Positions 8,111 to 38,530 of a DNA stretch of 64,000 bases are shown piece by piece. Made by a program: the position numbers and the translations under genes. This DNA comes from Gambelia wislizenii (lineage: Eukaryota; Chordata; Lepidosauria; Squamata; Crotaphytidae), in the NCBI GenBank assembly GCA_030847615.1, contig JAUMIR010000015.1, positions 1,133,501 to 1,197,500 on the forward strand, read 5' to 3'. Within the stretch, counting starts at the first letter, position 1, and each line of letters starts with the position of its first letter. Under the pieces are notes generated by a model. It saw only the letters and a list, made by a program, of their open reading frames with translations, did not search any database and was not told the DNA's origin.

Positions 8111-8310
8111 TCCACTGCCCAATAATCCTGGCTGTGGAGAGGTTCCTCTTCATGCTTTGCAGAATCCTGCCTGCCTGCCATTTCTGCACTTCTTGTTCTT
8201 CGTGCTACCCACAATGTCTCCATGATGCTCAAGCGGATGCTGTTGAGAAGTTGTTGGTTTGAGGTCCCGTCTGCCACGACACCTCTGCAAGATGGTATGT
8301 GTGTGTGGCC
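8111..8310 (+). repeat. 200-bp repeat of unknown family (left edge of duplication)
   Basis: Recurs from 15511 (cut at the duplication joint) and, with few changes, at 24470-24713 beside a Gypsy LTR. It ends near the tgtgtgtgtggcc stretch. I do not recognise it; it is probably an interspersed repeat. Confidence 0.5.
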
Positions 8311-8597
8311 GCCACACCTCTCCAGCCACCCTTGTTTTGCTGCACCAGAAAGGAAAGAAACAAAGCCTCATGGTGGTAGAAGTTGTGAGAAGGGAAATGA
8401 TGCTCCTCTCATGAATCAAAGTGAGAAGGCGGCTGGCCGAGTCGAGGGCCCCATAGAGGAAAGTATTGTGGTTCGAAAGGCTGAAAGCAAAGCAGGGCTG
8501 TTCAAAGAGTACAGAAGAGACACCTAAAGACATCTGGTGGACAAGAGCCTTTCTGCTTCAGCTTGTAAGAAGGGGGTTGAGAAGACGGAGGGAGAGA

Positions 8598-8652
8598 ATG
8601 GATTTCCCCAGCTCTTGGCTTCCAATCTTGCTCTTACCTCTCCTGTCCCCAG
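8598..8652 (+). CDS. Copy A exon 1, signal peptide
   Basis: ATG followed by 17 further codons and one base (phase 1), with a leucine-rich hydrophobic core (SWLPILLLPLL), then donor CAG|gtgagt. This is the usual short first coding exon of SLAM-family genes. I took the ATG at 8598 because upstream in-frame codons belong to non-conserved duplicated sequence and the hydrophobic core follows directly. Confidence 0.72.
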
Positions 8653-11600
8653 GTGAGTGGTGGGTGGAGGAAAACAGGGACAGGGGAGAAGAATTTCAGC
8701 TCATTTCATGGTTCATGAGAGACCAGAAGCCCTGCAAGGAACAGCTGAGGGAGTTGGGAAGGTTTGGCCTGGAGAAGAGAAAAGATATTATATAATAATA
8801 ATAAAATTTTATTTCTATCCCGCCCCTCTGCAACACAATCGGGGTGGCTTACAATATAAAAACTCCATAGTTGCAGTACCCTAGCCCACCCACCCCTTAA
8901 AATAATATTAAATTATAATAATTATAATTATTGAGGTGGGATCATAGAATTGTAGAATTGGAAGAGACTCCAAGGGCCATCCAGTCCAACCCCCTTCTGC
9001 CATGCAGGAAGACACAACCAAAGCATTCCTGAAATGCCCTTCTAAATTCTGTTTCAAGACCTCCAAAGATGGAGACTCCACCACACTCCCAGGCAGTGCA
9101 TTCCACTTCTGAACAGCTCTTACCCTCAGGAAGTTCTTCCTAATAATGTTTAGGTGGAATTTCTTTTCTTGTAGTTTGAGTCCATTGCTCCATGTCCTAG
9201 TCTCTGGAGCAGCAGAAAATAAGCTTGCTCTTTCTTCCATATGACATCCTTTCAAATATTTCATAGAATCATAGAATCCTAGAGTTGGAAGAGACCGCCA
9301 AGGGCCATCTAGTCCAACCCCATTCTGCCATGCAAGAATAAACAATCCAAGCATTCCCGACAGATGGCCGTCTAGCCTCTGTTCAAAAACCTCCAAAGAA
9401 GGAGACTCCACCACGCTCCCAGGCAGCAGTATTTTCCAATTCCAAACAATTCTTACCATCTGGAAGTTCTTCCTAATGTTCAGGCAGAATTTCTTTTCCT
9501 GCAGTTTGAATCAGTTGTCAGCTGTCAGTGAATATGATATTTGTTTGTTGCTGAGTGCCTTCAAGCCATTTCAGAGTTATGGTGATCCTGAGGAAAACCT
9601 ATCACAGGATTTCCTTGGCAAGATTTCTTTTAGGGGGTTTGCCATGGCCTTCCACTGAGGCTGAGAGTGTGTGACCTACCCAAGGTCACCTAGCAGGTTT
9701 CCTTGGCCAAGCAAGGATTCGAAACCTGTTCTCCCAGAGTCCTAGTTCAATACTCAAACTATGAAACTCTCAAAATAGTTTTTCCCCCCAGCAAGATTTA
9801 TTATTCAGAATCCAGGTTTTGAAGAAACTGTAGTTGAGGAAGAGAAGATCCAGATGAACCTAAAACCTCCCAACAATGATTATCATGGCAAAGACAGACT
9901 GCTGGGTTTTGTTGTTTCATGACATGGAAACAGCCAGAAAGGAAGCAGAAAAGAGCATCATATCCATGCCAGAGAGGAAGCTCAGGAGGAGAGTGGCTGT
10001 GTTTTTAAAAGTGATGGATAAATTACCCACGAATTATAACATTATTTTTAAAAACTCGTATCTTAAGCAAAGGAGGTTCAGAGGTAGAATGCCACACCTT
10101 ATTCCTCCTGGGTTTTCCTCACATTGGGAAAACAAAGATAGCAATGGAACAACCTGATTTTGTTAGTGTTGAAAGGTCCTTTTCCCCCACCCACCCCCAG
10201 TGGCTTTGTAAAGTTGCTCAGGAGCAATGCTGCTGTTATTTAAAACTTTGTGGATTAATTTTTGGTTACATTTGTCAAGGAGAAGTCTGCTTGCAAAACA
10301 CTGGCCAGTTTGGGTCTATGGTAAGGCATTATGTATTACTTTTTTTATATAGCAATGCATAACCTAGGAGACATCCAGACTTTCCAAGGTTATACTGGTT
10401 TAAAATAAGCTAACCTGGGGAGCTGGTATGAAATGTTTCTGATTGTACCAGGAGCAGGCAGAAAAATATTTTGGGGTAATCAAAATAAAATAAAGCCAAA
10501 ATAAAATTGGAAATAAGAGGGGCGGGGGAGGAAACCTGGGATATTCTGGTTTTATTAATCTCTCTGGATGTGCCCTCGGTCTCACATTCGCATATTCAGC
10601 AGGGCTTTGGGGCAGGAAACTCTCAAGCAGAAATTTCTATCCTATCTAACATTTTTGGCTTTTCTTTTCTCTCCCCGCACACCCATTTCTACCATTTTTA
10701 AAGGTGTCATAAGTGATCCAGTACAGATGCCTCACTATCAGGTCAATGGGATGCTGGGGGGATCAGTCTTGCTGCCTGTCAGGAACATTTCCTCATCAGA
10801 AAAAGTGGAAAAAATAGAATGGAACTTCCAGCCGCAACCTGGCACAGGATTGTTCATTGCTGAATTCAGAGATGGGAGATTGGAGCGCCCTTACTCCGAA
10901 GACCGGTTTGGGCTGCGGTTGGAACTGGCTGACGAGACCACGCTGAGGATCCGAAATTTGGAGAAAGAGGATGGTGGAGTCTATGAGGCTCATGTTAGAC
11001 TTCATCCAGCAAACTTTCACAAGCACCAGTTCCACCTCATAGTCTATGGTAAGTAAATATTGCACCACAACCTGCTACTCTGTTCCTTACAGGATTTTCC
11101 CAACAGACCTCCATGGAGATTCACATCAGGATGAGAAAAACTCTCTTCTTTTCCTCATGTTTTTATAGCTAGTTTGTGAGATTATTTTTAGTCCTTCCTG
11201 CTTGGAAATTTGCACATACTTATTCCAAAAGGTACACATTTTTGTATGAGTCTTTCTCCATTCACCAAATTATGTTTGCATGCATATTTCCCCACCAGAT
11301 GTATCCCTATTTACTGGTACAGCCTCATGCCAAGGCACCATGTCTTTGAGAAATGGATAGATTTCATTAGCCCCCACTCCTGGGAGAAGTGGAATGAATC
11401 TTTTCATAAGAAAACACAAAACAGAAATACGATCTCTATTTCCATCTCTAAGTGGCTTGCTAATGCTCATATCAGGCTTCATAGAATCATAGAATCATAG
11501 AATTGCAGAGTTGGAAGAGACCCCGAGGGTCATCCAGTCCAACCCCATTCTGCCACGCAGGAAATCTTGATCAAAGCATCCCCAACTTCCATCAGCAAAG

Positions 11601-14166
11601 GTCGGAAAGCAGGCCTTCCACATCATGGTCTGTGGAGAGAAATCATGGCCCCATCCTCTTCCTTTTGTGGTGGACCTGAGCACAGAAAAGGACTCAGCAC
11701 CACTTTTTCTTCTGCAGTTCATGATGCTTGGGGAGCCACAGACAGGGACGGGGGGAATCCTCCTGTTTCTGTATCAGGTTTTTGTGCGATTTCTGCTCCC
11801 TTTGCTCTGTGTGTGAAAATTTTAAGCATATCCCCCTCTCTGATGTCCACATTTTGGTGTGCATTTTCCCATTGATTTCATTTTTTAAAAATCTATGTAC
11901 ATTTAGTTGTACTGTACATTTCAAATCCATTAGTCATCAGCGCACTTGCAGAAAGCGTGGGATGAGTCCTTCCTGAATCTTCGTTTGGAAAGAAAAGCCA
12001 GAGAGACATTTCAAATCTAGAAAAAAACACAGGGTAGCTGTGTTGACCTTATAGAAAAATGGTTTTATGTACATCCCCTAGAAACATGGGCATACAGTTC
12101 GACCCCTGTATCCATGGGGGTGAAGTTCCAAGACACCCCATGGATACCTGAAACTGTTGGTAATAGGGAACTCTCATAGAATCATAGAACTGTAGAGTTG
12201 GGAGAGACCCCAAGGGCCATCCAGTCCAACCCCGTTCTGCCATGCAGGAATACACAATCAAAGCATTCTCGACAGATGGTCATCCAGCCTCTGTTTAAAA
12301 ACCTCCAAAGAAGGAGAATCCACCACACTCCAAGACATAGAGTCATAGAACTGTAGAGTTGGAAGGGACCTCCAAGGGCCATCCAGTCCAACCCCATTCT
12401 GCCATGCAGGAAATCACGATCAAAGCATCCCTGACAGATGGCCATCCAGCCTCTGTTTAAAGACCTCCAAAGAAGGAGACCCCACCACACTCCAAGACAT
12501 AGAATCATAGGATGGTAGAGTTGGAAGGGACCTCCAAGGGGCATCTAGTCCAACCCTATTCTGACACGCAGGAATCACAATCAAAGCATCCCCGACAGAG
12601 GGCCATCCAGCCTCTGTTTAAAGACCTCCAAGGAAGGAGACCCCACCACGCTCCGAGGGAGTGTGTTCCACTGCCGAACAGCTCTTACTGTCAAAAAGTT
12701 CCTCCTCATGTTGAGGTGGAATCTCTGTTCCTGGAGCTTGCACCCATTGCTCCGTGTTCCAGTCTCTGGAGCAGCAGAAAACAAGCCTGCTCCATCCTCA
12801 GAGTGACATCCCTTCAAATACTTAAACAGGGCTATCATATCGCCCCTTAACCGTCTTTTGTCCAGGCTAAACATACCCAGCTCCCTAAGTCTCTCCTCAG
12901 AAGGCATCGTTTCCAGGCCTTTCACCATTTTAGTCGCCCTCCTCTGGACACGCTCCAATTGGTCAATATCCTTTTTGAATTGTGGTGCCCAGAACTGGAC
13001 ACAGTATTCTAAGTGAGGTCTGACCAAGGCAGAATAGAGTGGCACTATTACTTCCCTTGATCTAGACACTATACTTCTATTGATACAGCCCAAAATCGCA
13101 TTGGCCTTTTTAGCTGCCGCATCACACTGTTGGCTCATGTTCAACTTGTGGTCTACTAGGACTCCTAGATCCCTTTCGCATGTAGTCTCATTCAGCCAGG
13201 TCTCTCCCATCGTATGTCTATGCATTTCGTTTTTCTGCCCTAAGTGCAGTACCTTATATTTCTCCGTGTCGAATTTCATTTTGTTAGCTTTGGCCCAGCT
13301 CTCTAGTCTATCCAGGTCATTTTGAATTTTGATCCTGTCCTCTAGGGTATTAGCTACTCCTCCCAATTTGGTGTCATCTGCAAATTTGGTAAGTATGCGC
13401 CTAATTCCCTCATCCAAGTCATTAATAAAGGTGTTGAATAGCACTGGGCCCAGGACAGAACCCTGTGGCACCCCACTGGTCACATCTTTATAAGACAAAG
13501 AGGAGCCACTGCTGAGCACCCTTTGGGTTCGGCCGGTCAACCAATTACAAATCCATTTATTTTCAATGAGACAGAAAATGGATGTTGACCATAGAATCAC
13601 ATTGGAGGACCTAGAAATGCCTAGAGAGAACATATGTTTTCAGATGTGGATCAGTGAAACCATGGATACTGAATCCGTGGATACGGGGCTCGACCTGTAC
13701 ATCACGAGCCTCAAAAATGCGAGGGCCTCTGATGAAACACTGGCTGTCAGTTCTCCAACCTCTGGAGCCATGATGCAGATATTTTCAAAGGAAAATAGAA
13801 ACCCAGTGAGTTTATTTTCCAATTTCTTGGAACTGATGACTGGAATGTTTTCTCCATTGTTAACAGATCCCGTTCCAGTGCCGCAAATTCTCCACCGCGG
13901 AGCCACCAACTCTTTTGCTGGGTGCAATGTGACCTTGGAGTGTTGGGTGTCCGAAAAGGCAGGACTCAGCATCTCCTGGAGACTCGGGGATGCTCTCAGG
14001 CCCTTGGAAGAATATTCGGACTGGTATCATCTCTCTTCGGATGGCTGGCGTCTCCACGTGTACATGTGGTCCATCCCATTGGACTCCAATTTCACCTGCC
14101 TGGTTAGCAATCCAGCCAGTCAGAAGAGCACCTCCTTCGACTTGCTCAGTGTCTGCCCCCCTAAAG
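8598..14166 (+). CDS. SLAM-family Ig receptor, copy A (leader + IgV + IgC2; no membrane exon)
   Basis: Spliced gene fragment with exons 8598-8652, 10704-11048 and 13867-14166; all junctions are AG/GT and all are phase 1. Joined, they give 233 codons plus one base: a hydrophobic leader, an IgV domain without cysteines and an IgC2 domain with four cysteines. That pair is the hallmark of SLAM/CD2-family cell-surface receptors, which bind family members on other immune cells. No transmembrane exon lies between 14166 and the leader of copy B at 15975. Three outcomes are open: splicing into copy B (phases fit), read-through of the last donor to a stop at 14202-14204 (a secreted form of about 245 residues), or a non-functional copy. 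The family call is strong; the exact orthologue (Ly9, CD48, CD84 or a lineage-specific member) cannot be decided here. Confidence 0.8.
8797..8935 (-). mobile_element. SINE tail, minus; copy in unit B at 16174-16312
   Basis: ttttatttctatcccgcccc and tgcaacacaatcggggtggc, the reverse of the usual gcgggatagaaataaaa SINE end. The same repeat occurs at 46134 and 47832. Confidence 0.6.
8941..9515 (-). mobile_element. Two head-to-tail CR1 3' ends, minus (unit A)
   Basis: Two partial CR1 copies, 8941-9261 and 9262-9515, each starting with a catagaat tail block and reading into the C-terminal protein region. Same in unit B at 16318-16885. Confidence 0.85.
9540..9770 (-). mobile_element. tRNA-derived SINE, minus; copy in unit B at 16917-17147
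   Basis: Full-length reverse SINE: gccttcaagccatttcagag...caggatttccttggcaaga...ctgaggctgagag...aaggtcacc...ggattcgaaacc (B box). Confidence 0.7.
10704..11048 (+). CDS. Copy A exon 2, IgV domain
   Basis: 345 nt, phase 1 at both ends, acceptor after TTTTTAAAG and donor TATG|gtaagt. It encodes an N-terminal IgV domain with a G-G-S-V-L-L-P strand B, an I-E-W core tryptophan, the R-L-E-L/L-R-I-R-N-L strands and a D-G-G-V-Y version of the usual D-x-G-x-Y motif. There is no cysteine, as is typical of SLAM-family V domains, which lack the canonical disulfide. One N-glycosylation site (N-I-S) is visible. It differs from the copy B exon at 12 positions, 11 of them amino-acid changing. Confidence 0.85.
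11481..11578 (-). mobile_element. CR1 3' tail, minus; copy in unit B at 18849-18948
   Basis: catagaatcatagaatcat then gttggaagagaccccgaggg, with nothing upstream of the tail region. Confidence 0.8.
11928..12005 (+). mobile_element. RTE LINE 3' tail, 78 bp, with 12-bp target duplication; copy in unit B
   Basis: Only the last 78 bp of the RTE tail, flanked by acatttcaaatc at 11916-11927 and 12006-12017. A real 5'-truncated insertion, shared by unit B at about 19284-19361, so older than the duplication. Confidence 0.8.
12092..13702. mobile_element. Tigger-like MITE split by CR1 array (unit A); copy in unit B at 19448-21220
   Basis: Left MITE half about 12092-12172 (cgacccctgtatccatgggg), right half about 13568-13702 (gatactgaatccgtggatac), with a minus-strand CR1 between them. 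Confidence 0.7.
12174..13562 (-). mobile_element. CR1 LINE with tandem 3' ends (unit A)
   Basis: Encodes the RT palm-to-C-terminus ([43 protein letters not shown]) in one open frame down to 12581, followed on the minus strand by two further 3'-end copies (12333-12499, 12174-12332). 5' truncated. Confidence 0.9.
13867..14166 (+). CDS. Copy A exon 3, IgC2 domain
   Basis: 300 nt, phase 1 at both ends, acceptor TTAACAG, donor AAAG|gtgagt. It encodes an IgC2 domain with four cysteines ([13 protein letters not shown] and S-V-C near the end), matching the two-disulfide C2 domain of SLAM-family receptors. N-glycosylation sites N-V-T and N-F-T are visible. The exon is identical to that of copy B except for one base (Pro to Leu near the end). 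Confidence 0.85.
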
Positions 14167-14449
14167 GTGAGTCATTCTGTGTCCTCCATCCCCTTTCCTT
14201 GTAACACAGGTGTCGTTTCCTGAATACACAACACAGAAGTGGGGAAACTTTCTTTTCCCCATTAGAAGTGCCATTGACCCAGATTAAAAGACCAGTCACC
14301 AATGGGGTCTTTTGGACTGCCCCGTGTGTGCTGTCATCTTCCATTGGTTAGGCAAAATCTGGCAACGTGGAACAACAGCCAGGATATCACTCACACACAC
14401 AAAACACACACACACAACACTTTTCATCCTCTGTCACTGCTTTGGGAGC

Positions 14450-14675
14450 CAGTGTGGTGTTGTGCTTTGAGCATTGGACTAGGGCACGGGGAGAACAGGG
14501 CACAAACCCCCATTCCGTCATGGAAAACCATTGGGTGAACATAGTTCGGTGACACTTTCTCAGCCTCAGAGAGAGATGGAGGCAAAGGGAAACCCCCTTT
14601 GAACAAAACTTGCCAAGAAAACCCCATGATAGGTTTGCCTTAGGGTCGCCATAAAACACACAACAACAATGACTG
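14450..14675 (+). mobile_element. tRNA-derived SINE; copy in unit B at 21970-22197
   Basis: gtgctttgagcattggacta, a diverged B box, cagcctcagagagag, cttgccaagaaaacccc and an acacaacaacaa end. Confidence 0.7.
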
Positions 14676-14897
14676 GTCTCTTCTGGGCGGCCTATCCAGA
14701 TAGTTTTTAAATTATGAGTTTTAAAGTATGAATTAATCATTTTTAATATGTATGGATTTGATATGTTCTTTTAATGGGTGTTGCTTTTTTTAAAAAAAAA
14801 TGGTGGTATGTGTTCGTAATGGATGTTAAGTGTCCAGACTATGATATCTTTTAATCTCTTGTTTTTCCATGCCTGAAAGCGAGAAGTGGGTAAGTAA

Positions 14898-14934
<37 letters not shown>
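14676..14934 (+). mobile_element. SINE-like tail and ATT microsatellite
   Basis: ggtctcttctgggcggcc...gagaagtgggtaagtaat followed by ATT repeats (14900-14932). The same block lies at 22198-22446 and, diverged, at 39946-40190. Confidence 0.5.
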
Positions 14935-15510
14935 CTCTCTCTCTGGCTTTTCTTCGCAAACGAAGATTCAGGAAGGACTCATCCCGCGCTTTCTGCAAGC
15001 GCACTGATGACTAAAAAGGCCAATCCGAGATAAACAAGTCCGGTTGCAGAAAGCACAGCAGAAGGTCCCCTTGGGTGATGTTTCCGGGCTGTGATTCTTT
15101 CTGCATTATCGTTTCTCTTCAAGATTTGTTCGGTGTGAGTTCTCAAATAAGGTTGCCGCATTGTGGATAGTGCATCTCCATGCCTCCCGATGTGAGGCCA
15201 GGGCGGACCATTGTTGGTGATCAATTTGGCCGAGCCTGAGATGTTGTTTCAGGGAGTCCTTGTATCGCTTTTTTGGAGCGCCCCTCTTACGCTGACCCGT
15301 GGCGAGTTCACCGTAGAGTAGTATTTTGGGGAGGCGATGGTCCTCCATCCTAGAAACGTGCCCTGCCCAGCGCAGCTGCATTCTCAATATCATGGCCTCC
15401 ATGCTGGTGATCCCTGCTTGTTCAAGGACAGCAACATTCGTCACATACTCAGTCCAGTGTATATTTAGGATTGTGCGTAGACAGCGCTGATGAAAGCGCC
15501 CGAGGAGGCA
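14935..15510 (-). mobile_element. RTE-type LINE 3' part, cut by the duplication joint
   Basis: Minus-strand C-terminal region and tail of the RTE. It ends abruptly at 15510 where unit B starts. Confidence 0.9.
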
Positions 15511-15974
15511 GTGGAGAGGTTCCTCTTCATGCTTTGCAGAATCCTGCCTGCCTGCCATTTCTGCACTTCTTGTTCTTCGTGCTACCCACAATGTCTCCAT
15601 GATGCTCAAGCGGATGCTGTTGAGAAGTTGTTGGTTTGAGGTCCCGTCTGCCACGACACCTCTGCAAGATGGTATGTGTGTGTGGCCGCCACACCTCTCC
15701 AGCCACCCTTGTTTTGCTGCACCAGAAAGGAAAGAAACAAAGCCTCATGGTGGTAGAAGTTGTGAGAAGGGAAATGATGCTCCTCTCATGAATCAAAGTG
15801 AGAAGGCGGCTGGCCGAGTCGAGGGCCCCATAGAGGAAAGTATTGTGGTTCGAAATGCTGAAAGCAAAGCAGGGCTGTTCAAAGAGTACAGAAGAGACAC
15901 CTAAAGACATCTGGTGGACAAGAGCCTTTCTGCTTCAGCTTGTAAGAAGGGGGTTGAGAAGACGGAGGGAGAGA

Positions 15975-16029
15975 ATGGGTTTCCCCAGCTCTTGGCTTCC
16001 AATCTTGCTCTTACCTCTCCTGTTCCCAG
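15975..16029 (+). CDS. Copy B exon 1, signal peptide
   Basis: Same structure as the copy A leader, 55 nt and phase 1 out, with two substitutions, both amino-acid changing (D to G at residue 2, S to F near the end). Donor CAG|gtgagt is intact. In a four-domain transcript starting at copy A this exon would have to be skipped. Confidence 0.72.
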
Positions 16030-19000
16030 GTGAGTGGTGGGTGGAGGACAACAGGGACGGGGGAGAAGAATTTCAGCTCATTTCATGGTTCATGAGAGAC
16101 CAGAAGCACTGTGAGGAACAGCTGCGGGAGTTGGGAAGGTTTGGCCTGGAGAAGAGAAAAGATATTATATAATAATAATAAAATTTTATTTCTATCCCGC
16201 CCCTCTGCAACACAATCGGGGTGGCTTACAATATAAAAACTCCATAGTTACAGTACCCTAGCCCACCCACCCCTTAAAATAATATTAAATTATAATAATT
16301 ATAATTATTGAGGTGGGATCATAGAATTGTAGAATTGGAAGAGACTCCAAGGGCCATCCAGTCCAACCCCCTTCTGCCATGCAGGAAGACACAACCAAAG
16401 CATTCCTGAAATGCCCTTCTAAATTCTGTTTCAAGACCTCCAAAGATGGAGACTCCACCACACTCCCAGGCAGTGCATTCCACTTCTGAACAGCTCTTAC
16501 CCTCAGGAAGTTCTTCCTAATAATGTTTAGGTGGAATTTCTTTTCTTGTAGTTTGAGTCCATTGCTCCATGTCCTAGTCTCTGGAGCAGCAGAAAATAAG
16601 CTTGCTCTTTCTTCCATATGACATCCTTTCAAATATTTCATAGAATCATAGAATCCTAGAGTTGGAAGAGACCGCCAAGGGCCATCTAGTCCAACCCCAT
16701 TCTGCCATGCAAGAATAAACAATCCAAGCATTCCCGACAGATGGCCGTCTAGCCTCTGTTTAAAAACCTCCAAAGAAGGAGACTCCACCACGCTCCCAGG
16801 CAGCAGTATTTTCCAATTCCAAACAATTCTTACCATCTGGAAGTTCTTCCTAATGTTCAGGCAGAATTTCTTTTCCTGCAGTTTGAATCAGTTGTCAGCT
16901 GTCAGTGAATATGACATTTGTTTGTTGCTGAGTGCCTTCAAGCCATTTCAGAGTTATGGTGATCCTGAGGAAAACCTATCACAGGATTTCCTTGGCAAGA
17001 TTTCTTTTAGGGGGTTTGCCATGGCCTTCCACTGAGGCTGAGAGTGTGTGACCTACCCAAGGTCACCTAGCAGGTTTCCTTGGCCAAGCAGGGATTCGAA
17101 ACCTGTTCTCCCAGAGTCCTAGTTCAATACTCAAACTATGAAACTCTCAAAATAGTTTTTCCCCCCAGCAAGATTTATTATTCAGAATCCAGGTTTTGAA
17201 GAAACTGTAGTTGAGGAAGAGAAGATCCAGATGAACCTAAAACCTCCCAACAATGATTATCATGGCAAAGACAGACTGCTGGGTTTTGTTGTTTCATGAC
17301 ATGGAAACAGCCAGAAAGGAAGCAGAAAAGAGCATCATATCCATGCCAGAGAGGAAGCTCAGGAGGAGAGTGGCTGTGTTTTTAAAAGTGATGGATAAAT
17401 TACCCACGAATTATAACATTATTTTTAAAAACTCGTATCTTAAGCAAAGGAGGTTCAGAGGTAGAATGCCACACCTTATTCCTCCTGGGTTTTCCTCACA
17501 TTGGGAAAACAAAGATAGCAATGGAAGAACCTGATTTTGTTAGTGTTGAAATGTCCTTTTCCCCCACCCACCCCCAGTGGCTCTGTAAAGTTGCTCAGGA
17601 GCAATGCTGCTGTTATTTAAAACTTTGTGGATTAATTTTTGGTTACATTTGTCAAGGAGAAGTCTGCTTGCAAAACACTGGCCAGTTTGGGTCTATGGTA
17701 AGGCATTATGTATTACTTTTTTTATATAGCAATGCATAACCTAGGAGACATCCAGACTTTCCAAGGTTATACTGGTTTAAAATAAGCTAACCTGGGGAGC
17801 TGGTATGAAATGTTTCTGATTGTACCAGGAGCAGGCAGAAAAATATTTGGGGGTAATCAAGATAAAATAAAACCAAAATAAAATTGGAAATAAGAGGGGG
17901 GGGACTGGGATATTCTGGTTTTATTAATCTCTCTGGATGTGCCCTCGGTCTCACATTCACATATTCAGCAGGGCTTTGGGGCAGGAAACTCTCAAGCAGA
18001 AATTTCTATCCTATCTAACATTTTTGGCTTTTCTTTTCTCTCCCCGCACACCCATTTCTACCATTTTTAAAGGTGTCATAAGTGATCCAGTACAGATGCC
18101 TCTCCATCAGGTCAATGGGATGCTGGGGGGATCAGTCTTGCTGCCTGTCAGGAACATTTCCTCATCAGAAAAAGTGGAAAAAATAGAATGGGACTTCCAG
18201 CCGCAAACTGGCACAGGATTGTTCATTGCTGAATTAAGAGATGGGAGATTGGAGCGCCCTTACTCCGAAGACCGGTTTGGGCTGCGGTTGGAACTGGCTG
18301 ACGAGACCACACTGAGGATCCGAAATTTGGAGAAAGAGGATGGTGGAGTCTATAAGGCTCGTGTTAGACTTCATCCAGCAAACTTTCAAGAGCACCCGTT
18401 CCACCTCAAAGTCTATGGTAAGTAAATATTGCATCACAACCTGCTACTCTGTTCCTTACAGGATTTTCCCAACAGACCTCCATGGAGATTCACATCAGGA
18501 TGAGAAAAACTACCTTCTTTTCCTCATGTTTTTATAGCTAGTTTGTGAGATTATTTTTAGTCCTTCCTGCTTGGAAATTTGCACATACTTATTCCAAAAG
18601 GTACACATTTTTGTATGAGTCTTTCTCCATTCACCAAATTATGTTTGCATGCATATTTCCCCACCAGATGTATCCCTATTTACTGGTACAGCCTCATGCC
18701 AAGGCACCATGTCTTTGAGAAATGGATAGATTTCATTAGCCCCCACTCCTGGGAGAAGTGGAATGAATCTTTTCATAAGAAAACACAAAACAGAAATACG
18801 ATCTCTATTTCAATCTCTAAGTGGCTTGCTAATGCTCATATCAGGCTTCATAGAATCATAGAATCATAGAATTGCAGAGTTGGAAGAGACCACGAGGGCC
18901 ATCCAGTCCAACCCCATTCTGCCACGCAGGAAATCTTGATCAAAGCATCAGCAAAGGTCGGAAAGCAGGCCTTCCACATCATGGTCTGTGGAGAGAAATC

Positions 19001-22000
19001 ATGGCCCCATCCTCTTCCTTTTGTGGTGGACCTGAGCACAGAAAAGGACTCAGCACCAGTTTTTCTTCTGCAGTTCTTGATGCTTGGGGAGCCACAGACA
19101 GGGACGGGGGGAATTCTCCTGTTTCTGTATCAGGTTTTTGTGCGATTTCTGCTCCCTTTGCTCTGTGTGTGAAAATTTTAAGCATATCCCCCTCTCTGAT
19201 GTCCACATTTTGGTGTGCATTTTCCCATTGATTTCATTTTTTAAAAATCTATGTACATTTAGTTGTACTGTACATTTCAAATCCATTAGTCATCAGCGCA
19301 CTTGCAGAAAGCGTGGGATGAGTCCTTCCTGAATCTTCGTTTGGAAAGAAAAGCCAGAGAGACATTTCAAATCTAGAAAAAAACACAGGGTAGCTGTGTT
19401 GACCTTATAGAAAAATGGTTTTATGTACATCCCCTAGAAACATGGGCATACAGTTCGACCCCTGTATCCATGGGGGTGAAGTTCCAAGACACCCCATGGA
19501 TACCTGAAACTGTTGGTAATAGGGAACTCTCATAGAATCATAGAACTGTAGAGTTGGGAGAGACCCCAAGGGCCATCCAGTCCAACCCCATTCTGCCATG
19601 CAGGAATACACAATCAAAGCATTCTCGACAGATGGTCATCCAGCCTCTGTTTAAAAACCTCCAAAGAAGGAGACTCCACCACACTCCAAGACATAGAGTC
19701 ATAGAACTGTAGAGTTGGAAGGGACCTCCAAGGGCCATCCAGTCCAACCCCATTCTGCCATGCAGGAATACACAATCAAAGCATTCTCGACAGATGGTCA
19801 TCCAGCCTCTGTTTAAAAACCTCCAAAGAAGGAGAATCCACCACACTCCAAGACATAGAGTCATAGAACTGTAGAGTTGGAAGGGACCTCCAAGGGCCAT
19901 CCAGTCCAACCCCATTCTGCCATGCAGGAAATCACGATCAAAGCATCCCTGACAGATGGCCATCCAGCCTCTGTTTAAAGACCTCCAAAGAAGGAGACCC
20001 CACCACACTCCAAGACATAGAATCATAGGATGGTAGAGTTGGAAGGGACCTCCAAGGGGCATCTAGTCCAACCCTATTCTGGCACGCAGGAATCACGATC
20101 AAAGCATCCCTGACAGAGGGCCATCCAGCCTCTGTTTAAAGACCTCCAAGGAAGGAGACCCCACCACGCTCCGAGGGAGTGCGTTCCACTGCCGAACAGC
20201 TCTGACTGTCAAAAAGTTCCTCCTAATGTTGAGGTGGAATCTCTGTTCCTGGAGCTTGCATCCATTGCTCCGTGTTCCAGTCTCTGGAGCAGCAGAAAAC
20301 AAGCCTGCTCCATCCTCAGTGTGACATCCCTTCAAATACTTAAACAGGGCTATCATATCGCCTCTTAACCGTCTTTTTTCCAGGCTAAACATACCCAGCT
20401 CCCTAAGTCTCTCCTCATAAGGCATGGTTTCCAGACCTTTCACCATTTTAGTCGCCCTCCTCTGGACACGCTCCAATTTGTCCATATCCTTTCTGAATTG
20501 TGGTGCCCAGAACTGGACACAGTATTCTAAGTGAGGTCTGACCAAGGCAGAATAGAGCGGCACTATTACTTCCCTTGATCTGGACACTATACTTCTATTG
20601 ATACAGCCCAAAATTGCATTGGCCTTTTTAGCTGCCGCATCACACTGTTGACTCATGTTCAACCTGAGGTCTACTAGGACTCCTAGATCCCTTTCGCATG
20701 TAGTCTCATTCAGCCAGGTCTCTCCCATCCTATATTTATGCATTTCATTTTTCCGCCCTAAATGCAGTACTTTACATTTCTCCGTATTGAATTTCATTTT
20801 GTTAGCTTTGGCCCAGCTCTCCAGTCTATCCAGGTCATTCTGAATTTTGATCCTGTCCTCTAGGGTATTAGCTACTCCTCCCAATTTGGTGTCATCTGCA
20901 AATTTGATAAGTATGCCCCTAATTCCCTCATCTAAGTCATTGATAAAGACGTTGAACAGCACTGGGCCCAGGACAGAACCCTGTGGCACCCCACTGGTCA
21001 CATCTTTCCTAGACGAAGAGGAGCCACTGCTGAGCACCCTTTGGGTTCGGCCGGTCAACCAATTACAAATCCATTTATTTTCAATGAGACAGAAAATGGA
21101 TGTTGACCATAGAATCACATTGGAGGACCTAGAAATGCCTAGAGAGAACATATGTTTTCAGATGTGGATCAGTGAAACCATGGATACTGAATCCGTGGAT
21201 ACGGGGCTCGACCTGTACATCACGAGCCTCAAAAATGCGAGGGCCTCTGATGAAACACTGGCTGTCAGTTCTCCAACCTCTGGAGCCATGATGTAGATAT
21301 TTTCAAAGGAAAATAGAAACCCAGTGAGTTTATTTTCCAATTTCTTGGAACTGATGACTGGAATGTTTTCTCCATTGTTAACAGATCCCGTTCCAGTGCC
21401 GCAAATTCTCCACCGCGGAGCCACCAACTCTTTTGCTGGGTGCAATGTGACCTTGGAGTGTTGGGTGTCCGAAAAGGCAGGACTCAGCATCTCCTGGAGA
21501 CTCGGGGATGCTCTCAGGCCCTTGGAAGAATATTCGGACTGGTATCATCTCTCTTCGGATGGCTGGCGTCTCCACGTGTACATGTGGTCCATCCCATTGG
21601 ACTCCAATTTCACCTGCCTGGTTAGCAATCCAGCCAGTCAGAAGAGCACCTCCTTCGACTTGCTCAGTGTCTGCCTCCCTAAAGGTGAGTCATTCTGTGT
21701 CCTCCATCCCCTTTCCTTGTAACACAGGTGTCGTTTCCTGAATACGCAACACAGAAGTGGGGAAACTTTCTTTTCCCCATTAGAAGTGCCATTGACCCAG
21801 ATTAAAAGACCAGTCACCAATGGGGTCTTTTGGACCGCCCCGTGTGTGCTGTCATCTTCCATTGGTTAGGCAAAATCTGGCAACGTGGAACAACAGCCAG
21901 GATATCACTCACTCACACACACAAAACACACACACACACCACTTTTCATCCTCTGTCACTGCTTTGGGAGCCAGTGTGGTGTTGTGCTTTGAGCATTGGA

Positions 22001-22419
22001 CTAGGGCACGGGGAGAACAGGGCACAAACCCCCATTCCGTCATGGAAAAACATTGGGTGAACATAGTTCGGTGACACTTTCTCAGCCTCAGAGAGAGATG
22101 GAGGCAAAGGGAAACCCCCTTTGAACAAAACTTGCCAAGAAAACCCCATGATAGGTTTGCCTTAGGGTCGCCATAAAACACACAACAACAATGACTGGTC
22201 TCTTCTGGGCGGCCTATCCAGATAGTTTTTAAATTATGAGTTTTAAAGTATGAATTAATCATTTTTAATATGTATGGATTTGATATGTTCTTTTAATGGG
22301 TGTTGCTTTTTTTAAAAAAAAATGGTGGTATGTGTTCGTAATGGATGTTAAGTGTCCAGACTATGATATCTTTTAATCTCTTGTTTTTCCATGCCTGAAA
22401 GCGAGAAGTGGGTAAGTAA

Positions 22420-22450
<31 letters not shown>

Positions 22451-23502
22451 CTCTCTCTCTGGCTTTTCTTCGCAAACGAAGATTCAGGAAGGACTCATCC
22501 CGCGCTTTCTGCAAGCGCACTGATGACTAAAAAGGCCAATCCGAGATAAACAAGTCCGGTTGCAGAAAGCACAGCAGAAGGTCTCCTTGGGTGACGTTTC
22601 CGGGTTGTGATTCTTTCTGCGTTGTCGTTTCTCTTCAAGACTTGTTTGGCGTGAGTTCTCAAATAAGGCTGCAGCATTGTGGATAGTGCGTCTCCATGCC
22701 TCCCGATGAGAGGCCAGGGCGGACCACTGTTGGTGATCAATTTGGCCGAGCCTGAGATGTTGTTTCAGGGAATCCTTGTATCACTTTTTTGGAGCGCCCC
22801 TCTTACGCTGACCCGTGGCGAGTTCACCGTAGAGTACTATTTTTGGGAGGCAATGGTCCTCCATCCTAGAAACGTGCCCTGCCCAGCGCAGCTGCGTTCT
22901 CAATATCATGGCCTCAATGCTGGTGATCCCTGCTTGTTCAAGGACAGCAACATTCGTCACATAGTCAGTCCAGTGTATATTTAGGATTGGGCGTAAACAG
23001 CGCTGATGAAAGCGCTCGAGGAGTCGTAGGTGGTGGCGATAGGTGACCCATGTTTCAGATCCACAAAGGAGGATAGACAGTACAATGGCTCTATACACAC
23101 TGATTTTTGTGTTTATTAATAATAACAATAATAATAATAATGCCAAGTGCCAGGTATCTGAAGGCCCATATACTCCCTCATTAGCTTGCCTCATCTTTGG
23201 TATCTTTGGGAGAGGCCCTTCTCTTGTGATTCTCCAACTTCCAGAATCCCCCAGCCAGTGGGAGTTGTAGGCCAAGAAAGAAACATTTTCTGATTTCTTA
23301 AAGGTATTAGCCCAATAAGGAACTTCTCCGAACTCTTCAGCCCTCCCTTCTACCTCAAGAGGTCTTCCTCCCTGGTTTCTCTGCAGAGCCGTGGAACTGT
23401 TTCTCGTGGGTCAGAATCGCCTTCGCTGTGGGCCTCGCGGTAGAGATTGCCACCATCACATTAGTGAACCTTCTGGAAAGAAAAGACCGGGATCAAACCT
23501 GA
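15975..23502 (+). CDS. SLAM-family Ig receptor, copy B, short cytoplasmic tail
   Basis: Four exons (15975-16029, 18073-18417, 21385-21684, 23387-23502), all phase 1, give 816 nt and 271 residues: leader, cysteine-free IgV, four-cysteine IgC2, one membrane helix and about nine cytoplasmic residues. No ITSM tyrosine motif is present. The layout resembles CD48-like or short-tailed SLAM members, but the charged residues after the helix argue for a true transmembrane segment and not a GPI signal. If exon 1 of copy B is skipped, copy A plus copy B would encode a V-C2-V-C2 receptor of about 486 residues like Ly9. I found no frameshift or internal stop. Confidence 0.82.
18073..18417 (+). CDS. Copy B exon 2, IgV domain
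   Basis: 345 nt, phase 1/1, same splice sites as copy A. Cysteine-free IgV domain. At the positions where A and B differ, B often matches copy C (for example K-A-R-V near the C-terminal strand and Q-T-G-T in the middle), so many of the A changes look derived. Confidence 0.85.
18849..18948 (-). mobile_element. CR1 3' tail, minus (unit B)
   Basis: Counterpart of 11481-11578; catcagcaaagg follows directly, with a short deletion relative to unit A. Confidence 0.75.
19531..21080 (-). mobile_element. CR1 LINE with four tandem 3' ends (unit B)
   Basis: Same element as 12174-13562 but with one additional about 162-bp 3'-end unit, so four head-to-tail ends in place of three. RT frame open from 21151 to 20099. 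Confidence 0.9.
21385..21684 (+). CDS. Copy B exon 3, IgC2 domain
   Basis: 300 nt, phase 1/1, four cysteines as in copy A, from which it differs at one base in the penultimate coding stretch. The donor at 21685 is intact and leads in phase to the transmembrane exon at 23387. Confidence 0.85.
22447..23120 (-). mobile_element. RTE-type LINE 3' part (unit B and beyond)
   Basis: Same LINE as 14935-15510 but continuing past the breakpoint to the KISVYRAIVLSILLCGSETW block, then an AAT microsatellite near 23118-23140. Confidence 0.9.
23387..23502 (+). CDS. Copy B exon 4, transmembrane segment and stop
   Basis: The acceptor CTCTGCAG follows a pyrimidine tract. Joined in phase 1 it reads a short stalk (EPWNCFSWVR), a hydrophobic helix (IAFAVGLAVEIATITLVNLL), a charged tail (ERKDRDQT) and TGA at 23500-23502. 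A glutamate sits near the middle of the helix, which is unusual for a membrane anchor. The region lies just beyond the right breakpoint of the A/B duplication, so this exon exists only once. Confidence 0.65.
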
Positions 23503-23697: not shown

Positions 23698-23703
23698 ATT
23701 AAA
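23698..23703 (+). terminator. Candidate polyadenylation signal for copy B
   Basis: ATTAAA, a common variant signal, about 195 nt after the stop of copy B in otherwise repeat-free sequence, followed by T/G-rich sequence (ttgctgaaacttgttgacc). It would give a short 3' UTR. Confidence 0.4.
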
Positions 23704-24311: not shown

Positions 24312-24469
24312 AATCTTTTCTTGACACTTCCTGACTGCAACAGTAGGCAGTTGGATAGATGACCCACCCCTTTGCTCAGAAAAAAATAACTTTTTGGGAA
24401 GCTACAACTTTAAGTATCCACCACATGGGCAAGGGATTCTGGGATTTGGTGTGTGTGTGTGTTTTAAAG

Positions 24470-24713
24470 TAACTTTTCTAAATTCAGCTCCTGAATCTCT
24501 GCTCCCACTGCCCAATAATCCTGCCTGTGGAGAGGTTCCTCTTCATGCTTTGCAGAATCCTGCCTGCCTGCCATTTCTGCACTTCTTGTTCTTCGGGCTA
24601 CCCACAATGTCTCCATGATGCTCAAGCGGATGCTGTCGAGAAGTTGTTGGTTTGAGGTCCCGTCTCTGCCACGACACCTCTGCAAGATGGTATGTGTGTG
24701 TGGCCATCACACC
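24470..24713 (+). repeat. Third copy of the 200-bp repeat, abutting a Gypsy LTR
   Basis: Nearly identical to 8111-8310 (one CT insertion near 24665 and a few substitutions). It stops exactly where the LTR starts (TGTGATGTCC at 24714), so the LTR element inserted into or beside it. Confidence 0.5.
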
Positions 24714-25082
24714 TGTGATGTCCAGAGAACACACACTCACATACAATCAATAAGCTTCTTTATTGATGAGGAATCATGTGTCAGGAACATAGCCAAAGCT
24801 GCAACTGAGGCACAGAAAGACAAAGCTACAGATAAAAGGCATCCAGCATGAGAAAAGCCGGGAGGACATCAAAGTCAGGGGGGGAGTGAAAAGAGCCCTT
24901 AAACCATCTGGCCGGTCGTGGCCTTGAGCTCCTGGTAGGACCAGCGTGACCATGCCAACCAAGAGGCCTGGCTCGACTCCCAGACATTCTAAGGCCTGAG
25001 AAAGTATCAAGCCCAAACTAACTACTTGTCAGGGCCTCCATGAATTCCACTCCAAATCCCAGAATTCAGGGATGTCCTGACA
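24714..25082 (-). mobile_element. Gypsy-type LTR (3' LTR of the minus-strand element)
   Basis: Begins TGTGATGTCC and ends GGGATGTCCTGACA on the + strand, so the LTR starts TGTCAGG and ends ACA on the minus strand. It is related in sequence and ends to the solo LTR at 54817-55162. C-runs at 25089-25120 mark the polypurine-tract side. Confidence 0.7.
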
Positions 25083-27846
25083 TACTGCCCCCCTGAAGAC
25101 AAACTCCCCCCCCCCCGGTGTCAGCCGGGCTTATTGGGAAAGCAGGCATGGAACTTTCGCAACAAGCGCGGGGCATTAACATGCTCAGAGGCAACCCATT
25201 CGGCACGACCCAAAGGCAGGTGTTTCCATTTCACCAAATATTGTAACTCTCCCCGATGAACCCTAGAGTACAAGATCTCAGAGATTTCAAAATGCTGGTC
25301 TTGGTCCACCAGGATCGGCTGAGGTGCGGCCTCCGGGGCCGGATGGTGTTGGTCAGGAGAACTCGCGGGTTTGAGTAAACTGGAATGAAATACAGGATGC
25401 ACATGTCGGTACAACTTAGGTAAAGACAATTCAAATGCTACAGGATTTATCACTTTTACAATAGGAAAAGGACCAATATACTTGGCACCCAACTTAGAAT
25501 CATAGAATCATAGAATCATAGAATTGCAGAGTTGGAAGAGACCCCGAGGGCCATCCAGTCCAACCCCCTGCCATGCAGGAAATCTTGATCAAAGCATCCC
25601 TGACAGATGGCCATCCAGCCTCTGTTTAAAGACCTCCAAGGAAGGAGACCCCACCACGCTCCGAGGGAGTGCGTTCCACTGCCGAACAGCTCTTACTGTC
25701 AAAAAGTTCCTCCTCATGTTGAGGTGGAATCTCTGTTCCTGGAGTTTGAACCCATGGCTCCATGTCCTAGTCTGTGGAGCAGCAGAAAACAAGCTTGCTC
25801 CATCCTCAACGTGACACCCCTTCAGATACTTAAACAGGGCTATCATATCGCCTCTTAACTGTCTTTTTTCCAGGCTAAACATACCCAGCTCCCTAAGTCT
25901 CTCCTCATAAGGCATCGTTTCCAGACCTTTCACCATTTTAGTTGCCCTTCTCTGGACACGCTCCAATTTGTCAATATCCTTTCTGAATTGTGGTGCCCAG
26001 AACTGGACACAGTATTCTAAGTGAGGTCTGACCAAGGCAGAATAGAGTGGCACTATTACTTCCCTTGATCTAGACACTATACTTCTATTGATACAGCCCA
26101 AAATCACATTGGCCTTTTTAGCTGCCGCATCACACTGTTGACTCATGTTCAACTTGTGGTCTACTAGGACTCCTAGATCCCTTTCGCACGTGGTCTCATT
26201 CAGCCAGGTCTCTCCCATCCTATATTGATGCATTTCATTTTTCTGCCCTAAGTTACATTTCTCCGTATTGAATTTCATTTTGTTAGCTTTGGCCCAGCTC
26301 TCCAGTCTATCCAGGTCATTCTGAATTTTGATCCTGTCCTCTAGGGTATTAGCTACTCCTCCCAATTTGGTGTCATCTGCAAATTTGATAAGTATGCCCC
26401 TAATTCCCTCATCTAAGTCATTGATAAAGATGCTGAATAGCACTGGGCCCAGGACAGAACCCTGTGGCACCCCACTGGTCACATCTTTCCAAGACGAAGA
26501 GGAGCCACTGCTGAGCACCCTTTGGGTTCGGCCGGTCAACCAATTACAAATCCATTGAACAGTTAACTTGTCTAGCCCACGTTTTACAAGCTTGTTTGCA
26601 AGAATGTCATGGGGAACCTTGTCAAAGGCCTTTCTGAAATCAAGGTATGCGATGTCCACAGCATTCCCTTCATCTACCAAGCTGGTAACTTTATCAAAAA
26701 AAGAGATCAGATTAGTCTGGCATGACTTGTTTCTCTGAAACCCATGTTGACTTTTTGTGATTCTGGCATTGCCTTCTAAATGTTCACAGACTCTCTGTTC
26801 AATGATCTGCTCTAGAATCTTCCCTGGTATTGATGTCAGACTAACTGGACGATAATTGTTTGGATTCTCTTTTTTCCCCTTTTTGAAGATGGGAACTCCG
26901 TTTGCCCTCCTCCAGTCTGCTGGGACTTCTCCTGTTCTCCAGGAGTTCTCAAAGATTATCGCCAATGGCTCTGAGATTATATTTGCCAGCTCTATTAATA
27001 CTCTTGGAATACTTCTTGGAGGGTTGGGGGCTTTTAAGAAACTTAGTGGACAAATAAACCATGTCCCCTACAGCATATTCCGGGCTGGGGTCCCGCTTTT
27101 GATCAGCATAATGTTTGTAGCGCGATTTGGCAAAGTCCAAAGCCGAAATCACATGAGGCCAGGCGTCCTGGATCTTTTGACTCCACAGGGAGACCAAGAC
27201 GGGGCCCGAGGAAGACCCCTTCATCAAAGGCAGGGGACCGAAGTCCTGTCCAGTGACAACCTTGAAAGGCGAAAAGCCTGTGCTCTGGTGGGTAGCATTA
27301 TTATAAGCCACCTCAGCAAAAGGTAAAAGGTCAACCCAGTCAGTTTGTTGGAAATTCACATAACACCTTAGGTACTGTTCAAGTGTCTGATTCAAGCGTT
27401 CCGTTTGTCCATCCGTCTGGGGATGATGGGAGCTGCTGAGGCCCAGCTCTACCCCCAGAAGGTTGGTAAAAGCTCTCCAAAACTGAGAAGTAAATTGGGG
27501 CCCCCGATCAGAGACAATCTTGGCAGGAATGCCATGGAGGCGATAAATATGCTGGATGAACAATTTGGCCAATTGGGAGGCAGTGGGGACTTTCCTGCAG
27601 GCTACAAAATGCGATTGTTTGGAGAACAAATCAGTAACTACCCAAATAACTGTCTTTTTCCTACTTTCAGGTAACTCTACTATGAAATCCATGCTGATGA
27701 CCTCCCAGGGCTTGGTTGGGGTGGGCAGAGGTTGGAGCAGGCCTTTGGGCTTCCCGGACCCTCCCTTTGCCATGGCACATGTGGGACACCCCTTCACATA
27801 CTCCTCCACCTTCTTCCTCATTCACATACTCCACCTTCTTCCTCAT
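25083..27846 (-). mobile_element. Ty3/Gypsy chromovirus-type pol 3' part, split by a CR1
   Basis: Minus-strand integrase (27821 down to about 27014): zinc-binding C-P-T-C, then catalytic D (V-V-T-D-L), D (V-S-D-R-G-P-Q-F) and E (Q-T-E-R-L-N-Q), all present. After the CR1 insertion the frame resumes at 25492 with the G-A-K-Y-I-G-P-F-P-I-V-K segment and a chromodomain (ILYSRVHRGELQYLVKWKH). The 5' half (gag, protease, RT) and 5' LTR are not seen. Chromodomains target integration to particular chromatin. Confidence 0.85.
25495..27013 (-). mobile_element. CR1 LINE inserted in Gypsy pol
   Basis: Minus-strand frame 26965-25589 covers most of the RT (NNYRPVSLTSIPGKILEQ, DFRKAFDKVPH, SGVPQGSVLGPVLF, F-A-D-D), with a small deletion near 26252. 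The 3' end has three catagaat repeats at 25497-25520. Confidence 0.9.
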
Positions 27847-38449: not shown

Positions 38450-38530
38450 GAAGGAGGCCAAAGATATCACTCATGGGGCCAAGTGGAAACCTGCAGCTCT
38501 TCCTAGGGATGTTTTTCTACGTACTCTATG
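38450..38530 (+). CDS. Copy C exon with start codon and signal peptide
   Basis: The acceptor ACCTTGCAG at 38449 opens an exon with 23 untranslated bases, then ATG at 38473 and 58 coding bases with a hydrophobic leader ([13 protein letters not shown]), ending at donor TATG|gtgagt (phase 1). The acceptor implies an untranslated exon upstream. Confidence 0.65.

What the first reader, a model, noticed from the sequence alone, without database searches (positions are those of the whole stretch)
8134..23502. Duplication of exons 1-3 without the membrane exon: possible four-Ig Ly9-like receptor
Unit A and unit B both carry leader, IgV and IgC2 exons, but the only transmembrane exon lies beyond the right breakpoint. 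All exons are phase 1, so A-V, A-C2, B-V, B-C2, TM joins cleanly if the B leader is skipped (about 486 residues). Ly9 (CD229) is the known V-C2-V-C2 SLAM member. This looks like a recent, independent route to that architecture, or else a way to make a secreted receptor from A.
Basis: partly seen in the sequence, partly recalled or inferred. Interest (0 to 1): 0.78.

Follow-up and report, generated by a model that had tools for sequence, protein, structure and literature searches.

The report
Half-duplicated lizard SLAM-type immune receptor
A lizard immune-receptor gene carries a recent extra copy of its outer half, so one membrane anchor now serves two sets of recognition domains and the locus could make a double-length receptor, though no RNA has been examined to show that it does.

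Summary
Window 8130-15507 and 15507-23023 are direct copies (98.4% identical). Each carries leader, IgV and IgC2 exons; one membrane exon (23387-23502) follows. All junctions are phase 1. A-L, A-V, A-C2, B-V, B-C2, TM translates as one 486-aa protein; B alone gives 271 aa. A search of the genome (2.47 Gb, 68 contigs, iguanian-like lizard) found this anchor exon once more, in a single-unit paralogue. The A/B junction is a base-precise join inside a dispersed repeat, so I take the tandem as real, although no reads were available.

The Ly9 label is only half right. The four-Ig ectodomain is the expected splicing outcome, untested; but the tail is about 10 residues without an ITSM, and an arginine sits at the anchor's outer edge. 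The architecture has precedents among database gene models: a Sceloporus V-V-C2-TM protein with the same anchor type and a Zootoca V-C2-V-C2 protein, both with the second leader skipped.

New here: a ~700-bp tract around the V exon is nearly identical (8 of 692 differ) to a paralogue that probably has a tyrosine-motif tail, against 10-25% in 9 of 10 flanking windows. This suggests gene conversion of the recognition domain between putative paired receptors.

The parts
8130..15507 (+). Unit A: 5' flank, leader, V, C2 and first part of intron 3
   Evidence: Direct repeat of 15507-23023
15507..23023 (+). Unit B: second copy; complete gene together with the TM exon
   Evidence: 36 of 4736 sites differ outside V, C2 and the LINE-like block
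8598..8652 (+). Leader exon A (MDFPSSWLPILLLPLLSP), phase 1
10704..11048 (+). IgV exon A
   Evidence: Pfam V-set E 3.9e-13; splice sites
13867..14166 (+). IgC2 exon A, donor AAG|GTGAGT
   Evidence: Pfam Ig matches below cut-off when scanned alone
14167..14204 (+). Intron read-through after A-C2: GESFCVLHPLSL then stop (possible secreted form; present after B-C2 too)
14933..15507 (+). Dispersed repeat truncated at the A/B junction
   Evidence: 0-1 bp microhomology at the join
15975..16029 (+). Leader exon B (MGFPSSWLPILLLPLLFP)
18073..18417 (+). IgV exon B; 12 nt differences from A (11 nonsynonymous, 1 synonymous)
21385..21684 (+). IgC2 exon B; 1 nt difference from A
22449..23114 (+). Full-length copy of the dispersed repeat in which the right breakpoint (23023) lies
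23387..23502 (+). Shared membrane exon: EPWNCFSWVRIAFAVGLAVEIATITLVNLLERKDRDQT, stop
23698..23703 (+). ATTAAA, likely poly(A) signal of the shared 3' end
   Evidence: motif scan only
10441..11140 (+). Gene-conversion-like tract around V-A (B counterpart about 17818-18509): near-identical to paralogue H
   Evidence: B-H 8 of 692; 9 of 10 flanking 100-nt windows differ by 10-25%

Best explanation
A recent tandem duplication of about 7.4 kb, made by end-joining or template switching into a dispersed repeat, copied the 5' region and exons 1-3 of a short-tailed SLAM-family receptor gene but not its membrane exon (shown at sequence level; the mechanism is inferred from the junction). The result is a compound locus with two 5' cassettes and one anchor. 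RNA started upstream of A meets no AATAAA before B's start codon and meets B-V as the next standard 3' splice site, because B's leader is a first exon; so it should splice A-C2 to B-V and make a 486-aa V-C2-V-C2 membrane receptor (inferred). RNA started at the copied B promoter makes the ancestral 271-aa two-Ig receptor (inferred). The V exon is kept close to that of a probably tyrosine-tailed paralogue by gene conversion (pattern shown, cause inferred), as in paired receptors. The arginine at the outer edge of the anchor may recruit an ITAM adaptor (inferred).
For: Exon set, phases and single 486-aa frame. Between A-C2 and the B ATG only one ATTAAA, shared with B's intron, and no AATAAA. No stops inside the V and C2 exons of either unit. 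B contains the 5' region that is also conserved in paralogue D from 8153 onwards, 88% over 632 columns. Single-unit D with the same TM exon and Sceloporus P0002, 270 aa, give the ancestral plan. Leader-skipping models P0001 and P0040. One full-length match to the junction in the genome; 23 of 27 matches cover only its repeat half. Conversion tract.
Against: No RNA data. Four AATAAA lie in B's intron 1 upstream of B-V; A's intron 1 has the same ones, so they seem tolerated, but this is not shown. Cryptic acceptors in front of B's leader were not scored. The A copy could be silent, or end in intron 3 as a secreted form. The copies differ by about as much as two alleles might, so a haplotype placed in tandem is not formally excluded without reads. 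P0001 and P0040 are computed gene models; P0040 is the only one of 35 hits that covers most of the four-Ig query and shows no hydrophobic anchor in my scan. 11 nonsynonymous to 1 synonymous change is not significant on its own (P = 0.20), so positive selection is not shown.
Confidence: 0.5

Rival explanations
1. Two alternative 5' cassettes share one anchor: A-C2 splices straight to the TM exon, skipping B-V and B-C2, so A and B are alternative two-Ig receptors with different V faces (UGT1A/protocadherin-like logic, recalled).
For: That join is also one open frame of 271 aa. A and B differ at 11 V residues, 9 of them in the C-C'-F-G part of the fold, and at 1 C2 residue.
Against: B-V and B-C2 have intact acceptors and donors, so they would have to be skipped actively; in the known cassette genes the skipped exons lack acceptors (recalled).
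Confidence: 0.15
2. A makes a secreted two-Ig decoy by retaining the start of intron 3.
For: Stop after 12 more residues beyond A-C2 and an ATTAAA at 14283.
Against: The same stop and ATTAAA (21801) follow B-C2, so nothing is special to A; no AATAAA there.
Confidence: 0.12
3. A is a non-functional leftover: a young, possibly polymorphic copy-number variant with little or no product from A; B is simply the gene.
For: Low divergence (36 of 4736); B has the conserved 5' region, leader and anchor.
Against: All A exons and splice sites are intact, though the copy is too young for this to count for much.
Confidence: 0.15
4. Assembly artefact: the two haplotypes of a one-unit gene were laid end to end.
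For: Background divergence of 0.76% is within reach of heterozygosity; no reads seen.
Against: No N in the window or in the 217-kb cluster; the join fuses a repeat to the gene's 5' flank with 0-1 shared base, leaving no overlap from which an assembler could build it; the V and C2 matches at E <= 0.001 in the whole assembly (10 and 8) lie in this one cluster, with no leftover haplotig; A and B relate differently to H along the tract.
Confidence: 0.08

Closest known systems
Ly9 / CD229 / SLAMF3
   Same: Possible V-C2-V-C2 ectodomain from a duplicated IgV-IgC2 pair (PMC4718992, passages seen)
   Different: Here a ~10-residue tail with no ITSM, a different membrane segment, and a very recent duplication that also copied 5' region and leader
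SLAMF8 and SLAMF9
   Same: Members with short tails lacking ITSMs (~30 residues; PMC4718992, passages); 22 of 39 relatives (21 lizard, 1 turtle) carry these names
   Different: Tail here ~10 residues, arginine at the edge and glutamate inside the membrane segment; orthology not tested
Sceloporus undulatus P0002 (270 aa, named Ly-9-like) and P0001 (384 aa, LOC121915020)
   Same: Same short-tail anchor type (SCFSWVRI..., LLER); P0001 joins leader-V-V-C2-TM with the second leader skipped
   Different: 62-63% identity; P0001 lacks the first C2; models from automated annotation
Zootoca vivipara P0040, 'Ly-9-like isoform X4' (639 aa)
   Same: V-C2-V-C2, joined without the second leader; halves 68% identical, each nearer to single-unit lizard proteins, 75% and 86%
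   Different: Long tail region, no anchor detected in this isoform, older duplication
CEACAM paired receptors
   Same: V-domain exons of activating and inhibitory paralogues kept alike by gene conversion (PMC2832619, passages including part of the abstract)
   Different: Different family; adaptor coupling here is unproven

Membership tests
CD2/SLAM family (SLAMF) | N-terminal IgV without the canonical cysteines, then IgC2 with two disulfides (feature recalled) | tested here: met
   V-A and V-B have no Cys; C2 has Cys at 20, 26, 78, 97; Pfam V-set
CD2/SLAM family (SLAMF) | IgV-IgC2 fold like solved family members | tested here: met
CD2/SLAM family (SLAMF) | Clustered genes with phase-1 domain exons, some with ITSM tails | tested here: met
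   10 V and 8 C2 exons within 165 kb. ITSM: TIYDQI exon at C7:1244495 matches the tail of turtle P0025 (E 0.001); TVYAKV at 1311417 is by motif and eye only (2 of 44 motif matches; not returned by the Anolis tail)
Ly9 / SLAMF3 | V-C2-V-C2 in one protein | tested here: inconclusive
   Coding capacity met (486 aa); transcript not testable here
Ly9 / SLAMF3 | Cytoplasmic tail with ITSMs | tested here: not met
   Only TM exon found ends LLERKDRDQT-stop
Ly9 / SLAMF3 | Orthology to mammalian LY9 | not tested
   No tree with mammalian members was built
SLAMF8/SLAMF9 | Short tail without ITSM | tested here: met
   B product 271 aa, ~10-residue tail; this is likeness only
SLAMF8/SLAMF9 | Orthology to mammalian SLAMF8 or SLAMF9 | not tested
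   Automatic names of relatives only
Paired activating/inhibitory receptors | Near-identical ligand-binding domain shared with a differently tailed paralogue | tested here: met
   H V exon 98.0% (B) and 96.8% (A) identical, flanks 83-92%; H has another anchor type and a LQYSQV exon follows at C7:1296756 (E 4e-06 to the tail of Hemicordylus P0041). That this exon belongs to H is inferred
Paired activating/inhibitory receptors | Adaptor (FcRgamma/DAP12) association through a basic membrane residue | not testable with these tools
   Arg lies at the outer edge of the membrane segment, present in A/B, D, P0001, P0002 and P0013

The most novel reading that the evidence does not exclude
A lizard SLAM cluster has evolved paired receptors: short-tailed, arginine-anchored members (A/B, D) whose V domain is exchanged by gene conversion with a tyrosine-motif member (H), and in which a half-gene duplication has just added a four-domain form using the same anchor, so the birth of a Ly9-type architecture can be watched at an age of under 1% background divergence.
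Probability: 0.3. Interest if true: 0.62.

Novelty: new variant of a known kind. Interest (0 to 1): 0.42.

Why it matters
Mammalian Ly9 has its V-C2 pair twice. This locus shows a very young case in which the first step (copying 5' region, leader, V and C2 in front of the original) is still visible with its breakpoint, and it predicts that the longer receptor appears at once through ordinary splicing rules, before any further change. The V-exon exchange with a probably tyrosine-tailed paralogue would extend the paired-receptor pattern to the SLAM family.

Tried and rejected
Positive selection on V: V differs at 12 of 345 sites against 36 of 4736 background sites (Fisher P 5.9e-05), but 11N:1S is not beyond the site ratio (P 0.20), and the excess coincides with a conversion tract that includes intron, so I do not claim selection. 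The lean of A/B changes to the C-C'-F-G part (9 of 11, region 52 of 115 residues, P 0.012) used a region chosen after seeing the data, and the changes are clustered; weak.

Idea that the upstream V-only exons (C7:1126258, 1129577) feed into A to make a six-Ig protein: put aside after finding a likely leader (1125122) and a candidate anchor exon of its own (1130928, one of 9 hydrophobic candidates). A search of the own genome with PF11465 (2B4 V domain) gave 0 matches, and 0 of 14 controls rang: uninformative. In one search, 14 of 44 proteins scored below 1.5 for the best anchor window (fragments or my crude window), so no conservation rate for the arginine is quoted.

Literature, all as search listings: SLAM with lizard (1 of 1 listed), reptile (3 of 3), squamate, Xenopus (12 of 1539, 6 of 1100), Ly9 and duplication (12 of 14), fused tandem genes (8 of 13), paired receptors (8 of 77). 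None of the rows listed is a study of reptile SLAM genes; this library lacks most subscription journals. I recall a 2011 Immunogenetics paper on CD2/SLAM expansion in Xenopus; I have not seen it. Two papers were opened, passages only: PMC4718992 and PMC2832619.

Full report
What is there. The window is G000:C7:1133501-1197500 of a 2.47-Gb assembly of 68 contigs. The best protein matches are Sceloporus undulatus at 62-63%, so this is a lizard, probably an iguanian (inference). Positions 8130-15507 and 15507-23023 are direct copies. Each holds a 5' flank, leader, IgV and IgC2 exon and part of intron 3. The membrane exon (23387-23502) lies only after the second copy. Splice sites are AG/GT and every join is phase 1. 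Four products read as single frames: A-L/V/C2-B-V/C2-TM of 486 aa, B alone of 271 aa, A-C2 to TM of 271 aa, and A-V to B-C2 to TM of 271 aa.

Genome context. Searches of the whole assembly with V-A, C2-A and the upstream V gave 10, 8 and 10 matches at E <= 0.001, all in one cluster on C7; the TM exon DNA gave 2, both there. Only the best candidates are scored by that tool, so these are lower bounds. Paralogue D (C7:1200657-1208602) has one copy of everything: 5' region, leader, V, C2, a 401-bp stretch of the same dispersed repeat in intron 3, and the same anchor, EPWNCFSWVRIAFAVGLAVEIATVTLVNLLERTDRDQR. This and Sceloporus P0002 (270 aa, two Ig, same anchor type) make the single two-Ig gene the likely ancestral state.

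How the duplication arose. Intron 3 carries a 666-bp dispersed repeat, complete after B (22449-23114) and cut after A at 15507. With a 165-base junction query, 27 places matched: the junction itself in full; A's own 5' flank from base 42 (99%); an older fragment at window 24527 from base 46 (98%); D from base 65 (79%); and 23 dispersed places that cover only the first 35-45 bases. Shared bases at the join: 0-1. That fits end-joining or template switching, not recombination between repeats. Divergence is 36 of 4736 sites (0.76%) outside V, C2 and the LINE-like block 12170-13560 (this background includes the 55-nt leader and intron parts of the conversion tract); the block itself has 46 of 1391. 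The repeat end (24 of 574) and the V exon (12 of 345) are higher, and C2 is 1 of 300.

The V exon and paralogue H. In 100-base steps along an A-B-H alignment, B-H differences are 0, 0, 2, 1, 4, 0 and 1 between 10441 and 11140 (8 of 692), while 9 of the 10 windows on either side differ by 10-25%, the exception being 3 of 99 at 10041. The V exon alone: 7 of 345 against 75 of 966 in flanks (Fisher P 3.2e-05). C2 of H differs from A at 26 of 300 sites, ungapped. Parts of the tract match H in B and other parts match H in A. So the V exon has been exchanged between this locus and H; number, direction and order of events are not resolved. H has another anchor type (92% like that of gene C). An exon with LQYSQV follows at C7:1296756 (E 4e-06 to the tail of Hemicordylus P0041). 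A last-exon-like TVYAKV lies 15 kb further on; it was picked by eye from 44 motif matches because Anolis P0003 ends with TVYSMV, and a search with that Anolis tail did not return it. That these exons belong to H is inferred.

What it most likely does. RNA from upstream of A meets no AATAAA before the B start codon (one ATTAAA at 14283, repeated after B at 21801). Four AATAAA follow in B's intron 1 (16177, 16714, 17866, 17877), but A's own intron 1 carries the same sequence, so an A transcript has already passed them once. B's leader is taken as a first exon, and the next standard 3' splice site after A-C2 is B-V; cryptic acceptors before the B leader were not scored (22 AGs between the last in-frame stop at 15831 and the ATG). 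The four-Ig form is therefore the default expectation; this is inference. Database models show the same leader skip: P0001 joins VYS to AINDPVG, with a second V and then C2 and the short anchor, and P0040 joins CQTDEE to TLSHAVGNP. Both are annotation products whose RNA support I could not see; P0040 is 1 of 35 hits to the four-Ig query and the only one that covers most of it (92%), and it has no anchor in my scan. A retained intron would end the protein after 12 more residues in A and equally in B.

What it is not. It is not Ly9 by tail: SLAMF3 is described as having a duplicated IgV-IgC2 in a family whose standard tail bears ITSMs, with SLAMF8 and SLAMF9 as the short, ITSM-less exceptions (PMC4718992, passages). 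Here the tail is about 10 residues. Automatic names do not settle it: of 39 relatives, 22 are called SLAMF8 or SLAMF9 and 5 Ly-9-like, the closest two-Ig one (P0002) among the 5. The arginine sits at the outer edge of the membrane segment in A/B, D, P0001, P0002 and P0013, and a polar residue (E, E, K, E, Q in that order) lies near the middle. Adaptor pairing is a guess from the general rule for paired receptors (a charged membrane residue, PMC2832619 passages).

Verdict. The four-Ig product is the leading but untested expectation. The Ly9 name should be dropped in favour of 'short-tailed SLAM-family receptor with a half-gene duplication'.

Noticed in passing
G000:C7:1125122-1131000 (upstream of the window; L011, L012): A V-only SLAM-like gene: likely leader 1125122, two V exons 86% alike (1126258, 1129577), candidate anchor exon 1130928, no C2 exon found by the profile scan.
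   Followed up: partly
24467-24714: Third, orphan copy of the 5' region just after the gene (97-98% to units A and B in its core), cut off at about 24715 by what looks like a retroelement; no leader, V, C2 or anchor of that unit found in the window.
   Followed up: partly
25121-25507 (-) and 25589-27067 (-): Open frames that look by eye like a chromodomain-type integrase end and a CR1-like reverse transcriptase of 492 aa; the related 3' end seems to be the repeat in intron 2 of both units.
   Followed up: no
38473-44801: Paralogue C with leader, V 41692, C2 42521 and anchor 44685; a tail-exon-like stretch at C7:1183114 has an in-frame stop, so its tail may be decayed.
   Followed up: partly
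G000:C7:1288045 (L022) and window 10441-11140: Gene-conversion-like tract of about 700 bp covering the V exon between the short-tailed locus and paralogue H.
   Followed up: yes
12170-13560 and about 19530-21075: LINE-like block in intron 2 diverges 3.3% between units against 0.76% around it, perhaps by exchange with other copies of the repeat; B has one extra 162-bp unit.
   Followed up: no
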